A stretch of DNA of 64,000 bases, taken from NCBI RefSeq assembly GCF_028330965.1, contig NZ_JAQMUB010000094.1:1-64000 (forward strand). Reading direction: 5' to 3'. Each line of letters begins with the position of its first letter. The first letter of the stretch is position 1. Of this stretch, positions 35,034-42,753 are shown piece after piece. A model generated the notes under the pieces. That model was not told the DNA's origin, did no database searches, and worked only from the letters and a program-made list of their open reading frames with translations. Source of the DNA: Oscillatoria sp. CS-180. Its GTDB lineage: Bacteria > Cyanobacteriota > Cyanobacteriia > Phormidesmidales > Phormidesmidaceae. Position numbers and translations under genes: made by a program.

Positions 35034-36941
35034 ATGCCCGTCGTCAATTCTCGCTTTGATTCGGCTTCTGTTCTCCACATGCCCATGCTGGATTCAAGCC
35101 CTTACTTGGCTTTAGAGTTGTTACCTGAGATGCCAACTAGCGGTTTGCCTAACGACTCGTCTGTTGCCCTGCCAGAACCTGCATCTATTGAACAACCCAA
35201 TGTTCAGTTTGGTCATTCTGGAGAGGATAACATCTATGGCTCAAATGGTAGTGATGTGGTTTTGGGGTTTGCCGGTAACGACATTTTGGCGGGTGGTGCT
35301 GGGCAAGATTATCTTCTAGGAGGTGGGGATAATGACTGGCTCAACGGTGGCGCAGATCATGATTTTGTCTGGGGTGGTACAGACAGTGACATACTCATCG
35401 GTGGGACTGGTGATGACGTTTTAATGGGCGGATTGGGGGATGACCTTCTTAAAGGACAATCTGACCATGACCAGCTTTGGGGAGGTGATGGCAATGACCA
35501 CCTAGAGGGCGGTATGGGGCAAGATCAATTGAACGGCGGCAGCGGCAACGATGTTTTGATAGATGCTGATGTGGGCACTCATATGACAGGCGGCAGTGGC
35601 AGTGACGAGTTTCGTATTGGCAACGGTCGTTTACCGCAGGACCCCAAGATTGCTATTTTTCCACCTCCACCTGACTTCACCATCACTGATTTCAATGTGG
35701 ATGAAGATGTTCTCAAGATCAACTACAATCTCGGGTTCGAGGACTTAATCATTACTGATACCGATCAGGGGGCGTTGATTAGTGTGGAACGCCGCTCAGG
35801 TTTAATTCTGCTGGAAAGTGTTAAAGCAGCTGACTTGGAGGAGGAGAGCTTTCGCTTTTTAGATGCGGAGCTAAGAACTGACTTGCAGGACTCTCTCGAC
35901 CAGACCGTGACTGATAGCGGCATACCCGGCGCAACAGCAGCCGTCATCACGCCAGAGGGCTACACCTGGTTAGGAGCCAGCGGCGTTGCCAATCTTGAGG
36001 TACCAATGGCGATGCAGTCGGATGCCCCCTTCAAAATCGGCAGTATTACCAAAACATTCACAGCTACCGTAGTGCTGCAATTAACGGAAGAAGGTTTGCT
36101 GTCTTTGGATGAGGGAATCGCTCAGTGGCTTCCTAATGAGGTAGCAGCGGTTATTCCCAACAGCGACACCATTACCGTACGTCAACTGTTGAACCACACC
36201 AGTGGTGTAGCCAACTTCCAGCGTAGTGAAGCCTACACTACAGCGTTGCTAGCTGAACCAACTCGTATTTGGCAACCCGAAGAAAGATTGACTTACGTCA
36301 GTGAGCTAGAGCCTGACTTCGATCCAGGGCAAGGCTGGACTTATTCTGCTAGCAACTATCATCTGCTGGATCTGATTATTCAAACCGTGACAGATTCCAC
36401 AATTGCCGATCAGATTCAGGCACGCATTACTAATCCTCTAGGTTTAGCTAATACCTATCTGTACGAGGGTGAGATGATTCCTACAGACCTTGTGCAAGGC
36501 TATCAAGATGTTTTTGCAGAAGACGGGTCTTACGGCGAAGACGGCGTTTTGGACAATGTTACGGCTGCCAACGCTAGCTCTAACTCGGCTTCAGGGGGTA
36601 TTATTTCGACCGCTGAAGAGGTTGCCTACTTTACACAAGCGTTATTCTCAGGCGAGTTGATCAATCCAGATACGTTAGAAGAGATGCTCACGTTTGTGGA
36701 CGCCCGTGATGACAAACGATATGGCTTGGGGCTGTGGGAAGAAGAGACTCCTGTCGGTACTGCGTGGGGGCACGATGGTGGAGTGTTGGGTTATCAATCG
36801 CAAATGTTTTATGCCCCAAATCAAAATATGACCAGCGTCGCACTGATTAACCAGCGCGAGTCACCAGGACAACCTCTTGGACAACCACAGCTCAAGATTG
36901 CTTTGGAGAATCTAGAAACGGTTATTAGTTCAGATCGATAG
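35034..36941 (+). CDS. RTX-repeat protein fused to serine beta-lactamase-fold hydrolase
   Basis: A 635-aa protein. Residues ~60-180 carry about a dozen RTX nonapeptide calcium-binding repeats (GGxGxDxLx type, such as GGTGDDVLMGGLGDDLLKG). A ~75-aa linker strand domain follows. Residues ~270-630 are a class C beta-lactamase/D-Ala-D-Ala carboxypeptidase-like domain with SxxK in GSITKTFTA, YxN in YSASNYHLLD, and HDGG in WGHDGGVLGYQ. All active-site residues are present. There is no signal peptide, so secretion by a type I system is likely, as usual for RTX proteins; no such exporter is adjacent. Confidence 0.85.
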   Translation: MPVVNSRFDSASVLHMPMLDSSPYLALELLPEMPTSGLPNDSSVALPEPASIEQPNVQFGHSGEDNIYGSNGSDVVLGFAGNDILAGGAGQDYLLGGGDNDWLNGGADHDFVWGGTDSDILIGGTGDDVLMGGLGDDLLKGQSDHDQLWGGDGNDHLEGGMGQDQLNGGSGNDVLIDADVGTHMTGGSGSDEFRIGNGRLPQDPKIAIFPPPPDFTITDFNVDEDVLKINYNLGFEDLIITDTDQGALISVERRSGLILLESVKAADLEEESFRFLDAELRTDLQDSLDQTVTDSGIPGATAAVITPEGYTWLGASGVANLEVPMAMQSDAPFKIGSITKTFTATVVLQLTEEGLLSLDEGIAQWLPNEVAAVIPNSDTITVRQLLNHTSGVANFQRSEAYTTALLAEPTRIWQPEERLTYVSELEPDFDPGQGWTYSASNYHLLDLIIQTVTDSTIADQIQARITNPLGLANTYLYEGEMIPTDLVQGYQDVFAEDGSYGEDGVLDNVTAANASSNSASGGIISTAEEVAYFTQALFSGELINPDTLEEMLTFVDARDDKRYGLGLWEEETPVGTAWGHDGGVLGYQSQMFYAPNQNMTSVALINQRESPGQPLGQPQLKIALENLETVISSDR

Positions 36942-39355: not shown

Positions 39356-40162
39356 ATGATCAAAAAATCCACAAAGCATCTTCCTACTCTTTTTGAAAAA
39401 GCTGCTCATGATACATGGAAGCGGCTAAAAGCCAGTTTAGAACTAGGTGTTTCTCAAAATGAAACAACTATTACAGATATTATTCTGCTAGATCTGAAAG
39501 CTGCAAAATGTCCATTTTTGCACGTTATTAAAACACCACAGAATATTGAATCTTCACAAGGTACTGATTGGGAATGGTGGATTGGAGCACACAATATTGG
39601 TTGGCTACGCTACGCGGTTCAAGCCAAGAAAGTTAATCTGTCTTCTCTAAGATATGACGATTTGGCACATAAAGTGAATGGAAAGCTACAGTTGGATATT
39701 TTGCGTTCCTACTCATCAGAAAACAGAGCGTTGGGTAGGTATTGCTTTTACAACTATACAAATTCTGTACAACCGGAAGTGCATTGGAACTGTAATCTTC
39801 CTTATGATTCCAGTCAGCTTGGCTGTTCTATAGCTACCCTAAGTACTGTCTCTAAAGCTATTGAGACTCGGGGTTACCGTGGCTTTGATTTTATCCATTC
39901 TGAGAGTTCAACGTTGCCATTTCGATGTTTAGTTACTTGTCCTATGATTCTGTCTATTTATGCAGGGGCAACTCGTTTTCCTCTTGGATTTGAAGATTAT
40001 GAAAATGCCCATATTTTTGAGTCGCTTCCACGTAATATTCAAGAAGGCATTGAGACAGGAGCTTCTGAAGGGTGGGATCCAAATTTCTACAGCGATGATA
40101 TTCGGTACCACCCTGAAAGGATACTTGTTGCAGAACTACCTTACTGGACAGACCAAGTCTAA
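39356..40162 (+). CDS. DUF6615-like protein, putative nuclease, first cassette
   Basis: A 268-aa protein encoded by AT-rich DNA. Visible features are TTITDIILLDLK, then SSQGTDWEWWIG and YAVQAKKVN, and later GRYCFYNY. DxEWW followed by QAK is the pattern I associate with DUF6615, which resembles a PD-(D/E)XK core (acidic residue, then ExW, then QxK). DNA cleavage or a defence role is an inference. It stops 17 bases before attC 40179. There is no neighbouring methylase or antitoxin on its own. Confidence 0.6.
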   Translation: MIKKSTKHLPTLFEKAAHDTWKRLKASLELGVSQNETTITDIILLDLKAAKCPFLHVIKTPQNIESSQGTDWEWWIGAHNIGWLRYAVQAKKVNLSSLRYDDLAHKVNGKLQLDILRSYSSENRALGRYCFYNYTNSVQPEVHWNCNLPYDSSQLGCSIATLSTVSKAIETRGYRGFDFIHSESSTLPFRCLVTCPMILSIYAGATRFPLGFEDYENAHIFESLPRNIQEGIETGASEGWDPNFYSDDIRYHPERILVAELPYWTDQV

Positions 40163-40178
40163 TGGTTAGATTCCACCC

Positions 40179-40264
40179 GCCTAACACATCGCGGCAGCGG
40201 ACGGTTGAAAGCCACTGGTGCTGAGTTTGCGGTTGTCTACCGCTGCTGCGTTTTGCCGTTAGGC
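40179..40264 (+). other. attC recombination site (86 nt)
   Basis: The outer boxes are GCCTAAC (40179-40185) and GTTAGGC (40258-40264), perfectly complementary. The inner arms CGCGGCAGCGG (40190-40200) and CCGCTGCTGCG (40240-40250) pair with one G-U. This is the standard layout of an integron attC, with R'' and L'' on the left and L' and R' on the right. The next gene starts 10 bases after it. Confidence 0.8.
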
Positions 40265-40273
40265 ATCGCTAAG

Positions 40274-40645
40274 ATGGAACTGTCTGAATTTGAGCATCGG
40301 GTCATTGACGCCATGATTAGCGGTGATCCTGACGAGGGCGTGCTTCGCAACCAGCTATGCCTGGCGACGGTCACGGAACGCAACTACACCGACGTTGGTG
40401 TTTTCGCGAAGCTCAATGCCCCCGTGTCGGCAATGCGAACCAAGATGACAAATCGCCTCATCCAGACAACTCCGATGGTCTACCTGACTCACCCGAAGTT
40501 GCCGCAGGGAGCGCAAGCTATGCTTTTGTTTCATAATGCCTTAATGAGTACTCTCGAATGCCTGGCATTTGACGAGGACTGGCCCGAAGACGAATCGAAG
40601 TTTACGGTGGAGCCGTATGGCAGCTTGCCGACGAGCGACGCTTAA
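40274..40645 (+). CDS. Small cassette-encoded protein, unknown
   Basis: A 123-aa soluble acidic protein starting MELSEFEHRVIDAMISGDPD. Later features are a Trp/Phe-rich C-terminal part (LECLAFDEDWPEDESKFTVE). It looks like a protein type often found in cassette arrays, but I cannot name a domain. ATG 40274, ten bases after the attC core, is far better supported than the upstream in-frame start inside the attC. Its stop lies within GCTTAAC, which itself could be the left box of a further, disrupted attC. Confidence 0.65.
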   Translation: MELSEFEHRVIDAMISGDPDEGVLRNQLCLATVTERNYTDVGVFAKLNAPVSAMRTKMTNRLIQTTPMVYLTHPKLPQGAQAMLLFHNALMSTLECLAFDEDWPEDESKFTVEPYGSLPTSDA

Positions 40646-40715
40646 CATATAGGACTAAGGGGATAATTGTTCAGAGTAAAATGTAGGCATACCATCGGTA
40701 AAAAGGTCAAAGCCT

Positions 40716-40982
40716 ATGACAATTGAGCGACTTCGCTATAGCAAAGAGGAATTTGCTCGACGAGGTAATGAGATTTATGAATCTCAAGTGCGTTCTCAAG
40801 TTGAGCAGGGCAATCATGGCAAAATTGTAGCGATCGATCTTGAGACGGGAGCCTTTGAACTGGCAAAGGATACGGTTACTGCATCAGATCGATTGCTTGA
40901 ACGTTACCCTAATGCTCAAATCTGGTGCGTTCGGGTTGGTCATAGAGGGGTTCATCGTTTTGGTGTAGGTCGTCTGCAATAA
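40716..40982 (+). CDS. Small partner protein of aspartic protease
   Basis: An 88-aa soluble protein starting MTIERLRYSKEEFARRGNEI. It has GKIVAIDLETGAFELAKDTV in the middle and WCVRVGHRGVHRFG at the end. It has no catalytic motif that I recognise. Its stop is 4 bases before the start of a clan AA aspartic protease gene. I recall this two-gene arrangement from many cyanobacteria, without an assigned role. A toxin-antitoxin or regulated-proteolysis pair is conceivable but unproven. Confidence 0.75.
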   Translation: MTIERLRYSKEEFARRGNEIYESQVRSQVEQGNHGKIVAIDLETGAFELAKDTVTASDRLLERYPNAQIWCVRVGHRGVHRFGVGRLQ

Positions 40983-40986
40983 CTCT

Positions 40987-41367
40987 ATGATGCAAGGAAT
41001 TGTTGATCAAATCTGCGAGGCGACAATCCGTTTAGTTGTGGGCAATGCAGATTCACAGAGGCAAGTGATTGATGCTGTCATTGATACGGGATTTACAGGT
41101 TTTCTGACACTGCCTTTTTCAGTGCTTGGAGATCTCAACTTACGGGCATATCGACGCGAAGAGGGAATCCTGGGAAATGGAAGCACCTGTATTTTCGATG
41201 TGTATCGTGGCCTAGTCATTTGGGATGGAGAGTTGCGGCGGATCGACATCAATGAATCTGATACAGCACCTTTGGTTGGTATGAGTTTACTCTATGGCTA
41301 TCGGATGCAGCTTGATGCTATTGAGGGTGGCAAAGTTACAATCCAGGCATTAAGCAGTTTAAGTTGA
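40987..41367 (+). CDS. Clan AA (retropepsin-like) aspartic protease
   Basis: A 126-aa protein. The catalytic D-T-G lies in VIDAVIDTGFTGFLTLP, and a second conserved segment, APLVGMSLLYGYRMQLDA, matches the G-x-x-hydrophobic flap of retropepsin-like domains. With one DTG per chain it would act as a dimer. It has no signal peptide and no membrane segment, so a cytoplasmic role is likely. Two ATG codons (40987 and 40990) are available. It is almost certainly cotranscribed with the 88-aa gene and ends 2 bases before a palindromic attC junction. Confidence 0.82.
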   Translation: MMQGIVDQICEATIRLVVGNADSQRQVIDAVIDTGFTGFLTLPFSVLGDLNLRAYRREEGILGNGSTCIFDVYRGLVIWDGELRRIDINESDTAPLVGMSLLYGYRMQLDAIEGGKVTIQALSSLS

Positions 41368-41369
41368 TC

Positions 41370-41387
41370 GGTTAGGCATGCCTAACC
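41370..41387. repeat. 18-bp perfect palindrome at cassette junction
   Basis: GGTTAGGCATGCCTAACC is a perfect palindrome made of a right-type core (GTTAGGC), AT, and a left-type box (GCCTAAC). It looks like one attC ending where the next begins, with no gene in between. Confidence 0.85.
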
Positions 41388-41468
41388 AGGGCTTGCAGCG
41401 GATGGACTGAACATTCTGCTTGCAGCTCAAAGACCCTTGCCCCCGCTGAAGCCAAAGCCGTTATCGGC
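41380..41468 (+). other. attC recombination site (89 nt)
   Basis: Left box GCCTAAC (41380-41386) and inner arm GGCTTGCAGCGG (41390-41401) pair with CCGCTGAAGCC (41443-41453); one base is bulged. The right core is GTTATCGGC (41460-41468), a variant of the usual GTTRRRY. Arm lengths, spacing and total size match the site at 40179-40264. Confidence 0.7.
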
Positions 41469-41523
41469 ACTGAAATTCAATCCCTCCGACATTGCTCGCT
41501 GCGTAAGCGATCGCCAAACCACT

Positions 41524-41890
41524 ATGAAGACCACCAAAGACCACGACGAACGTATCGCGAATATGACCTTCGCCCCTGTTTATCCGCTCTATGTTGCAAA
41601 GATTGAGAAGAAGGGGCGAACCGTAGAGGAACTCCACCAAGTCATTTCATGGCTGACTGGTTTCAAGGTGGAAGATCTGCATCGCCTGATTGAAAATGAC
41701 GCTACGTTTGAACAGTTCTTTGCTGAGGCCACGGTCAACCCGAATGCGAGCCTGATCACCGGGCTCAATCTGTGGCTATCGAGTTGAAGAAATTCAGACC
41801 CCGCTGACCAAACAGGCCAGATACCTGGACAAGTTGGTGGGCGAACTAGCGAAAGGACGCAAGATGGAAAAGATTTTACGGTCTCTCTAG
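41524..41890 (+). pseudogene. DUF2200 gene with a frameshift
   Basis: The reading frame from ATG 41524 encodes MKTTKDHDERIANMTFAPVY, YVAKIEKKGRTVEELHQVI and [11 protein letters not shown], a textbook DUF2200 start. Near 41764-41769 it runs into a premature stop. One base later in phase, the expected C-terminus continues: [20 protein letters not shown], then [18 protein letters not shown], with a stop at 41888-41890. A single extra base explains it. DUF2200 genes are known cargo of integron cassettes. It follows the attC at 41380-41468. Function unknown. Confidence 0.8.
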
Positions 41891-42371
41891 CTCGGAAAGC
41901 TGCGGATAACAATTATCGCATTCGTGAATACTGACCGATGAGGAGAGCCTTATTATCGAGAACGCCCCTTTTCGATAATAAGCGTTGGCTCACGAGACAA
42001 AATTCTAGCTGCACCGATATGGTGGGAGCAGCTGAGAATGCTGTGGCTCAAACTGAGTTAGGGGCTGTATCCCACTGTTTTGCCGAAGTCAGCCGTTCCT
42101 TTGGCTACAAGTATCAAATTTGACTTGCGCTGGGGGATCAAATGGACTACTATCAGCAACCATAGCTGCCTCCGTGCAGCTTGCTGTCCCCGAACGTTTA
42201 GTCGGCGGCACTGGCAAGTGGTAGCAACACAAACCAGCGCCTAACCCATAGACAGAACCAACCTGTCGTACGGGCTGTGCCTATTTTAGGTCGCCCCACC
42301 GAAGCGCTTCGTCTAAGGGCGACTGAATCTTCGGGGATTCCAACCCAACATGATTCTGGGAGGAATCCCCA
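41891..42371. other. Structured, gene-poor end of the cassette island
   Basis: No gene that I accept. CTTATTATCGA and TCGATAATAAG flank a 12-base centre at ~41950-41983, a strong dyad. From 42237, GCGCCTAA and ATAG-ACAG can pair with CTGTGCCTAT and TTAGGTCGC up to ~42294, giving a degenerate attC-like hairpin. GTCGCCC at 42290-42296 pairs with GGGCGAC at 42317-42323 around the palindrome GAAGCGCTTC. A 61-codon frame from 41938 is not recognisable. Confidence 0.4.
42333..42370 (+). promoter_or_regulatory. Hairpin that buries a ribosome-binding site
   Basis: GGGGATTCC (42333-42341) pairs perfectly with GGAATCCCC (42362-42370), extended inward by CCCA with TGGG. The 3' arm contains GGGAGGA, the only Shine-Dalgarno sequence for the GTG start at 42372. 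If formed in mRNA, this stem would block translation initiation. Confidence 0.6.
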
Positions 42372-42656
42372 GTGATTACCATTCAATACTTCCTGCCGTC
42401 TCATCACACTGAGGCGGCACCACCGTCGCTGCCGAGTAACCCTACTCATCCCCAACGGCGACACAAGCGACTGCGCCTCTATCTCGTCGGTACTGAAGCC
42501 GATACCCAAAGCGCTATTGATCTGTTTCACCTACGGAACTGTATCGAGCGCATCGAGTGGAGTCCGAAGATCGATGTCCCCGAAAACGGTGTGCTGATTC
42601 GCCAAGACCCCGGCGATGTGTTGCGATATTTGCAGCGCGATCGCCGGTTTGAATAG
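42372..42656 (+). CDS. Small conserved hypothetical protein
   Basis: A 94-aa protein. The N-terminal 35 residues are polar and Pro-rich. The rest (RLRLYLVGTEADTQSAIDLF, then IERIEWSPKIDV and DPGDVLRYLQRDRR) looks like a small alpha/beta domain of a kind seen in other cyanobacteria, with no known function. It starts at GTG, 7 bases after GGGAGGA; no ATG is available near the N-terminus. The ribosome site lies inside a strong hairpin. Confidence 0.55.
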   Translation: MITIQYFLPSHHTEAAPPSLPSNPTHPQRRHKRLRLYLVGTEADTQSAIDLFHLRNCIERIEWSPKIDVPENGVLIRQDPGDVLRYLQRDRRFE

Positions 42657-42753
42657 CGATCGCCCCAACGTAGCGAATTAGGCTAGTTGGAAATCAAGTG
42701 CGATCGCCTTTCAACACTAGATTATTTTGAGAGGCGATCGCCCCAACGCTTGT

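What the first reader, a model, noticed from the sequence alone, without database searches (positions are those of the whole stretch)
40716..41367. Two-gene module: 88-aa protein plus DTG aspartic protease inside the island
The genes are 4 bases apart and lie in a mobile context. The second is a single-domain retropepsin-like protease; the first has a conserved VRVGHRGVHRFG end and no known role. Pairing of a small protein with a cytoplasmic protease on mobile DNA suggests a toxin-antitoxin, defence or regulated-proteolysis system that has not been described.
Basis: partly seen in the sequence, partly recalled or inferred. Interest (0 to 1): 0.75.

Follow-up and report, generated by a model that had tools for sequence, protein, structure and literature searches.

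The report
Integron-borne small-protein/aspartic-protease gene pair
Two small adjacent genes, one for a basic protein of unknown family and one for an HIV-protease-like enzyme, travel together through cyanobacteria as integron gene cassettes, and the protease is almost never kept without its partner, which suggests an undescribed toxin-antitoxin-like system that uses an aspartic protease.

Summary
A (88 aa) and B (126 aa, DTG) lie 4 nt apart; in 72 of 89 related pairs the genes overlap as ATGA. B has a retropepsin-like sequence and predicted fold; A matches no Pfam or NCBIfam family. D[T/S]G is kept in 107 of 108 distinct full-length B. Among 292 cyanobacterial genomes, nearly every full-length B has A directly upstream. 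The one locus without any A reads NTT instead of DTG; one catalytic B is cut off from its A by a 1.1-kb insertion. By contrast, 72 distinct intact A genes (47 clusters) lack an adjacent full B, and orphan A still looks purifying-selected (dN/dS about 0.2). A is therefore probably not the toxin; catalytic B depends on A.

The 'island' is an integron-cassette context: attC sites flank the window module (40179-40264, 41380-41466). In 19 of 51 related pairs an attC begins within 30 nt of B's stop, always on the same strand, against none in 240 kb of control DNA. One related locus is a complete integron with intact integrase and 11 attC sites.

Best reading: a toxin-antitoxin-like cassette with B as protease effector and A as inhibitor. 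Toxicity, proteolysis and A-B binding are inferred, not shown.

The parts
40179..40264 (+). attC site closing the upstream cassette (R''=GCCTAAC, R'=GTTAGGC, fully complementary)
   Evidence: sequence; fold; attC-like scan; covariance model 70.1 bits, E=6.7e-11 (this site was one of 11 in the model)
40274..40645 (+). 123-aa ORF, first gene of the same putative cassette, starting 9 nt after the attC; no family
40677..40682 (+). TAAAAT, -10-like box of the A-B promoter (the module seems to carry its own promoter)
   Evidence: same box at about -38/-37 from the A start in most of 79 relatives: TARRMT within -55..-36 in 57 of 79, shuffles mean 4.7, largest 10
40716..40982 (+). gene A: 88-aa basic protein (pI 9.0), predicted alpha-beta-beta-alpha-beta fold; proposed antitoxin/inhibitor
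40987..41367 (+). gene B: 126-aa acidic (pI 4.4) retropepsin-like aspartic protease; DTG codons at 41083-41091; proposed toxin/effector
   Evidence: TIGR03698; profile to Rickettsia APRick E=0.006; fold match 5c9b for a relative, E=1.8e-4; DTG census
41380..41466 (+). attC site closing the A-B cassette, 12 nt after the B stop
   Evidence: fold; covariance model 59.6 bits, E=7.7e-9 (also in the model's training set)
39356..40162 (+). DUF6615 gene, upstream cassette content (context)
   Evidence: Pfam PF20320 E=6.5e-9
41524..41787 (+). DUF2200 gene directly after the second attC (context)
   Evidence: Pfam PF09966 E=2.6e-25 on the ORF 41437-41787

Best explanation
A-B is a two-gene toxin-antitoxin-like module carried as an integron gene cassette. 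Upstream A, translationally coupled to B, is the antitoxin; B is a cytoplasmic single-domain retropepsin that should act as a homodimer and, when not held by A, would cut host protein(s) and stop growth. Basic A (median pI 8.1) probably binds acidic B (median pI 4.4) and blocks its cleft or dimerisation. Loss of A, through cassette loss or stress proteolysis, would free B, which stabilises the cassette. Shown: pairing and order, conserved DTG, own promoter box, attC association, and the one-sided dependence of catalytic B on A. Inferred: toxicity, inhibition by A, dimerisation, targets, stabilisation.
For: Pairing: 142 A and 124 B hits in 292 genomes, 91 adjacent by BLAST, always A then B. Of the 33 other B, 25 have a divergent A directly upstream; the rest are fragments or special cases. 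Of 108 distinct full-length B, 107 keep D[TS]G; the one that does not (NTT, G211) has no A in its locus, and one search reported none in its genome. The only catalytic B without an adjacent A (G002) has A 1.13 kb upstream across an insertion. Intact A without an adjacent full B: 72 distinct, 47 clusters; in the balanced genome sample about 19 against 1, p=5e-4 under a length-based null. Orphan A has dN/dS about 0.2, so A is tolerated alone and keeps a function. ATGA overlap in 72 of 89. Own promoter box. attC in 19 of 51 pairs within 30 nt of B, same strand, none in control. Integrase-bearing genomes carry A in 12 of 21 against 45 of 271 others, p=8e-5. Neighbours are rich in PIN, DUF5615, DUF433 and MNT families; none of these reached two members in control.
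Against: No toxicity, cleavage or binding data. A has no known antitoxin or DNA-binding domain. B lacking A could decay through translational coupling or because A is a needed partner, not because B is toxic. L043 is an exception: a degenerate A core (residues 10-72, C-terminus lost) is fused in frame to an intact DTG-bearing B. The A-anchored collection inflates the orphan-A count. Random control regions are not matched for accessory DNA.
Confidence: 0.52

Rival explanations
1. Regulated proteolysis: A is the substrate of B (or a substrate adaptor). B cleaves or remodels A under some condition, and A is the effector that acts on the cell. Orphan A keeps its activity; B without A has no purpose and decays.
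For: A is kept alone under purifying selection. A is more conserved than B (window A against relatives up to 88%, B often 40-55%). Fixed coupling by ATGA.
Against: Uselessness alone predicts some young loci with broken A and intact B; none was clear, apart from the ambiguous fused L043. The only B in a locus without A lost its catalytic motif.
Confidence: 0.2
2. B is a useful, non-toxic enzyme that needs A as folding partner or cofactor, or whose translation depends on A by coupling; the asymmetry is then polarity and partner dependence.
For: ATGA overlap in most loci. Known bacterial retropepsin-like enzymes have stress roles (PMC12239564, abstract).
Against: Does not explain orphan A under selection, carriage as a cassette, patchy multicopy distribution (up to 12 A hits per genome), or the frequent inactivation of B beside intact A.
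Confidence: 0.15
3. Phage-defence cassette: B is an abortive-infection protease kept silent by A and released by a phage trigger.
For: Toxin-like anatomy, plasmid and integron carriage. Integron cassettes elsewhere are reported to carry defence genes (my own knowledge, not tested here).
Against: No PADLOC match. No known defence partner gene or phage copy found.
Confidence: 0.1

Closest known systems
Clan AA single-domain aspartic proteases TIGR03698 / COG5550 (pSNCAP), and Rickettsia APRick (PDB 5c9b/5c9d)
   Same: DTG motif, length about 120 aa, retropepsin fold; plasmid homologues of B are annotated 'clan AA aspartic protease'
   Different: Window B scores under the TIGR03698 cut-off; it is obligately paired with A and carried on cassettes. 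COG5550 proteins were described as little known and no partner is mentioned in the passages read (PMC2642776).
Type II toxin-antitoxin systems, especially integron-borne ones
   Same: Small two-gene operon, putative antitoxin first, ATGA coupling, own promoter, patchy multicopy spread, cassette carriage, antitoxin often left alone
   Different: No known toxin or antitoxin family; an aspartic protease effector. 'Aspartic' and 'aspartyl' do not occur in the type II survey PMC2701414.
COG2856 (ImmA-like) Zn protease with Xre repressor modules
   Same: Protease paired with a small regulator on mobile DNA (PMC2701414)
   Different: Metalloprotease and HTH repressor there; aspartic protease and a partner without a recognised HTH here.
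Pseudomonas aeruginosa retropepsin-like osmotic-stress proteins (PMC12239564)
   Same: Bacterial retropepsin-like aspartic proteases
   Different: Described as secreted, in stress tolerance and biofilm (title and abstract only); no A-like partner mentioned there.

Membership tests
Retropepsin-like clan AA aspartic protease | Catalytic D-T/S-G motif conserved | tested here: met
   107 of 108 distinct full-length B
Retropepsin-like clan AA aspartic protease | Retropepsin fold | tested here: met
   Predicted on relative L099, B part pLDDT about 90; best PDB match 5c9b, E=1.8e-4
TIGR03698 (clan_AA_DTGF) | Score above the curated cut-off | tested here: not met
   48.2 bits against 57.35: related to, but not filed in, this NCBI subfamily
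Retropepsin-like clan AA aspartic protease | Homodimeric proteolytic activity | not testable with these tools
   needs purified protein
Type II toxin-antitoxin system | Small bicistronic operon, antitoxin gene first, tight coupling | tested here: met
   A always upstream; ATGA overlap in 72 of 89
Type II toxin-antitoxin system | Toxin depends on antitoxin, antitoxin can stand alone | tested here: met
   polarity or cofactor need is an alternative cause
Type II toxin-antitoxin system | Toxin inhibits growth and antitoxin neutralises it by direct binding | not testable with these tools
   experiment needed; the fused model gave no usable interface
Type II toxin-antitoxin system | Member of a known toxin or antitoxin family, or antitoxin with a known DNA-binding domain | tested here: not met
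   Pfam, NCBIfam and PADLOC empty for A; B matches protease families only
Integron gene cassette | attC site after the gene, same strand, R''/R' core sites | tested here: met
   window 41380-41466 and 40179-40264; 19 of 51 relatives; 53 of 53 same strand
Integron gene cassette | Found in an array beside an integron integrase | tested here: met
   relative L330: intact intI 473 bits and 11 attC sites; in the window's own genome intI is broken and on another contig
Integron gene cassette | Excision or integration by IntI | not testable with these tools
   needs a recombination assay
Known anti-phage defence system | Match to a defence model | tested here: not met
   PADLOC-DB 2023, no match

The most novel reading that the evidence does not exclude
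A toxin-antitoxin class whose toxin is a retropepsin-like aspartic protease held by a new small-protein inhibitor family, spread through cyanobacteria and some other phyla as self-promoted integron cassettes: regulated intracellular aspartic proteolysis used as an addiction or defence weapon in bacteria.
Probability: 0.45. Interest if true: 0.88.

Novelty: new variant of a known kind. Interest (0 to 1): 0.7.

Why it matters
I know of no toxin-antitoxin system with an aspartic protease as effector, and the roles of the small bacterial DTG proteases (COG5550/TIGR03698) are open. A partner that catalytic B seems unable to do without makes the role testable: it names a candidate inhibitor or substrate. 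It also gives a function to cassettes in little-studied cyanobacterial integrons, and a natural intracellular partner or inhibitor of a retropepsin fold would interest protease biochemists.

Tried and rejected
Phage carriage: no match in phages or viral contigs. Known family for A: none in Pfam, NCBIfam or PADLOC; single-sequence Pfam hits at E 0.02-0.7 scattered over unrelated families are chance. Fold of A: no PDB match below E=1; VIA Z 3.8 to cytidine-deaminase-type folds is not informative. A as toxin: rejected as less likely, since orphan A is common and constrained. A-B complex: a mixed alignment of fused and separate chains could not be built with MAFFT; the fused L099 reading across its TAA stop gave a good B and a poor A, and no interface is claimed. 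Tandem A-A-B arrays are part of the 'orphan A' class and are not true losses in every case. Palindromic operator upstream of A: none evident. tRNA or RNA-family features near the module: none at a credible score.

Full report
1. The observation. The two ORFs are present as described: A 40716-40982 and B 40987-41367, both +, 4 nt apart. B is weakly but clearly a clan AA aspartic protease (TIGR03698, E=1.1e-12, below the curated cut-off). A profile of 45 relatives reaches the Rickettsia retropepsin APRick (5c9d, E=0.006), 11 of 45 relatives hit Pfam gag-asp_proteas, and a predicted model of a relative matches 5c9b by fold (E=1.8e-4). A matches no family. Its model is confident (pLDDT 83.8: helix 10-29, strands 37-41 and 47-50, helix 53-63, strand 69-73) and has no clear PDB match. 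The host is a cyanobacterium (6.5 Mb, 102 contigs; relatives). It has one copy of the pair, the sampled same-genus genome G170 has none, and the sampled same-family genome G215 has only a split A.

2. The pair is a unit. In 292 genomes of the phylum, 57 hold A and 56 hold B. Of 124 B hits, 91 have A adjacent by BLAST, always A then B (the one reversed case is an A fragment next to another pair). Of the remaining 33, 25 have a divergent A immediately upstream by profile search, four are truncated or split, one has lost the catalytic motif, one is separated from its A by 1.13 kb, and two were not examined. Spacing is stereotyped: 72 of 89 pairs overlap by ATGA and nine have the 4-nt gap seen here. 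A TAAAAT-like box sits about 38 nt before A in most relatives (57 of 79 within the tested range; shuffles mean 4.7), so the pair seems to carry its own promoter. Both genes are under purifying selection (dN/dS 0.18 and 0.22).

3. One-sided dependence. Of 108 distinct full-length B, 107 keep D[TS]G. The exception, in genome G211, reads NTT and has no A in its locus; the A search also reported none in that genome. The only other B without an adjacent A (G002) has A upstream across an insertion. Conversely, 72 distinct intact A (47 clusters at 85% identity) have no adjacent full B: the B is absent, truncated, frameshifted, or lies behind another A in a tandem array. Part of that count comes from an A-anchored scan; in the balanced phylum sample the figure is about 19 against 1. 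Orphan A remains constrained (pooled dN/dS 0.21 over 20 pairs, though in some pairs B may have been lost after the split). This is the pattern expected if free catalytic B is harmful and A is not. It is also partly expected from translational coupling or partner need, so it favours but does not prove toxicity. One ambiguous exception: L043 has a degenerate A (residues 10-72, C-terminus lost) fused in frame to an intact DTG-bearing B.

4. What the 'island' is. Between the DUF6615 gene and the next ORF lies an 86-nt imperfect palindrome with the integron attC core sites GCCTAAC...GTTAGGC (40179-40264), and a second one starts 12 nt after the B stop (41380-41466). A covariance model built from 11 such sites (two from the window, nine next to B in relatives) finds 54 matches in 79 sources that hold A-B loci and none in 240 kb of random regions from A-bearing genomes. 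In relatives, 19 of 51 distinct pairs have an attC starting within 30 nt of the B stop, and all 53 sites tallied lie on the A-B strand (one weak reverse duplicate of a + site was left out). Several of these 19 sites trained the model; the others were found by it. An earlier model-free scan gave 13 of 107 against 11 of 1200 control windows. In genome G185 (L330) the pair lies in a complete integron: intact integrase (473 bits) and 11 attC sites on the opposite strand, with A-B between attC sites. In G282 the pair lies directly after a divergent integrase and is followed by an attC. Integrase-bearing genomes carry A more often (12 of 21 against 45 of 271, p=8e-5). In the window's genome the integrase is interrupted and on another contig, and 15 attC-like sites are scattered. 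Only 1 of 35 orphan A against 19 of 51 pairs has an attC downstream (p=2e-4). The pair also occurs on eight Nostocales plasmids (A seen in seven) and in metagenome-assembled genomes labelled Armatimonadaceae and Deltaproteobacteria, with neighbouring genes that do not look cyanobacterial (binning not verified).

5. Neighbourhood. Genes within 1.5 kb of A-B include PIN (9), Uma2 (8), DUF5615 (4), DUF433 (3) and nucleotidyltransferase (3) families among 227 ORFs. In 173 control ORFs only Uma2 (2) appears among families with two or more members; single-member families below the display limit were not visible.

6. Mechanism proposed. A is basic (median pI 8.1), B acidic (median 4.4). I propose that A binds B and blocks its cleft or dimerisation, and that free B cuts host proteins. 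Shown: linkage, order, coupling, conservation, dependence, cassette carriage. Inferred: binding, inhibition, toxicity, target, stabilisation of the cassette. Rivals are regulated proteolysis of A, an A-dependent benign enzyme, and phage defence.

7. Known or new. Literature searches in an open-access library found no description of the pair. Aspartic proteases are not mentioned in the 2009 type II survey (PMC2701414), COG5550 is called little known (PMC2642776), and integrons in Cyanobacteria are known (PMC2426708). It works like a toxin-antitoxin cassette; it is not a member of any known toxin-antitoxin family by the tests made here.

Noticed in passing
window 42111-42660: A roughly 550-bp repeat with 15 or more copies (75-92% identity) in the window's own genome, holding a 94-aa ORF without family; possibly a non-autonomous element or a young gene family.
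   Followed up: no
L274 (G000:C53) 1081-2172: Integron integrase gene of the window's genome is interrupted (N- and C-terminal parts separated by about 140 nt with repeat-like sequence, plus a stop), so this genome's scattered cassettes may be immobile.
   Followed up: partly
L330 182-12203: Complete cyanobacterial integron with intact integrase and 11 attC sites; cassettes include DUF1877, a cupin and an SDR enzyme, and several ORFs without family.
   Followed up: partly
window 35034-36941: RTX-type calcium-binding repeats fused to a beta-lactamase/serine-hydrolase domain in one 635-aa protein.
   Followed up: no
L180 1139-1489: Full-length B without A whose DTG reads NTT: a natural catalytic-loss allele.
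   Followed up: yes
L043 1201-1875: Degenerate A fused in frame to an intact B.
   Followed up: partly
L116 3273-3503: An orphan A followed at once by a UPF0175-like small ORF (resemblance recalled, not tested), as if B had been replaced by another toxin-antitoxin component.
   Followed up: no
L182, L181, L188: Tandem arrays of divergent A-B pairs (A-B-A-B-A-B) or repeated A before one B in other cyanobacteria.
   Followed up: no
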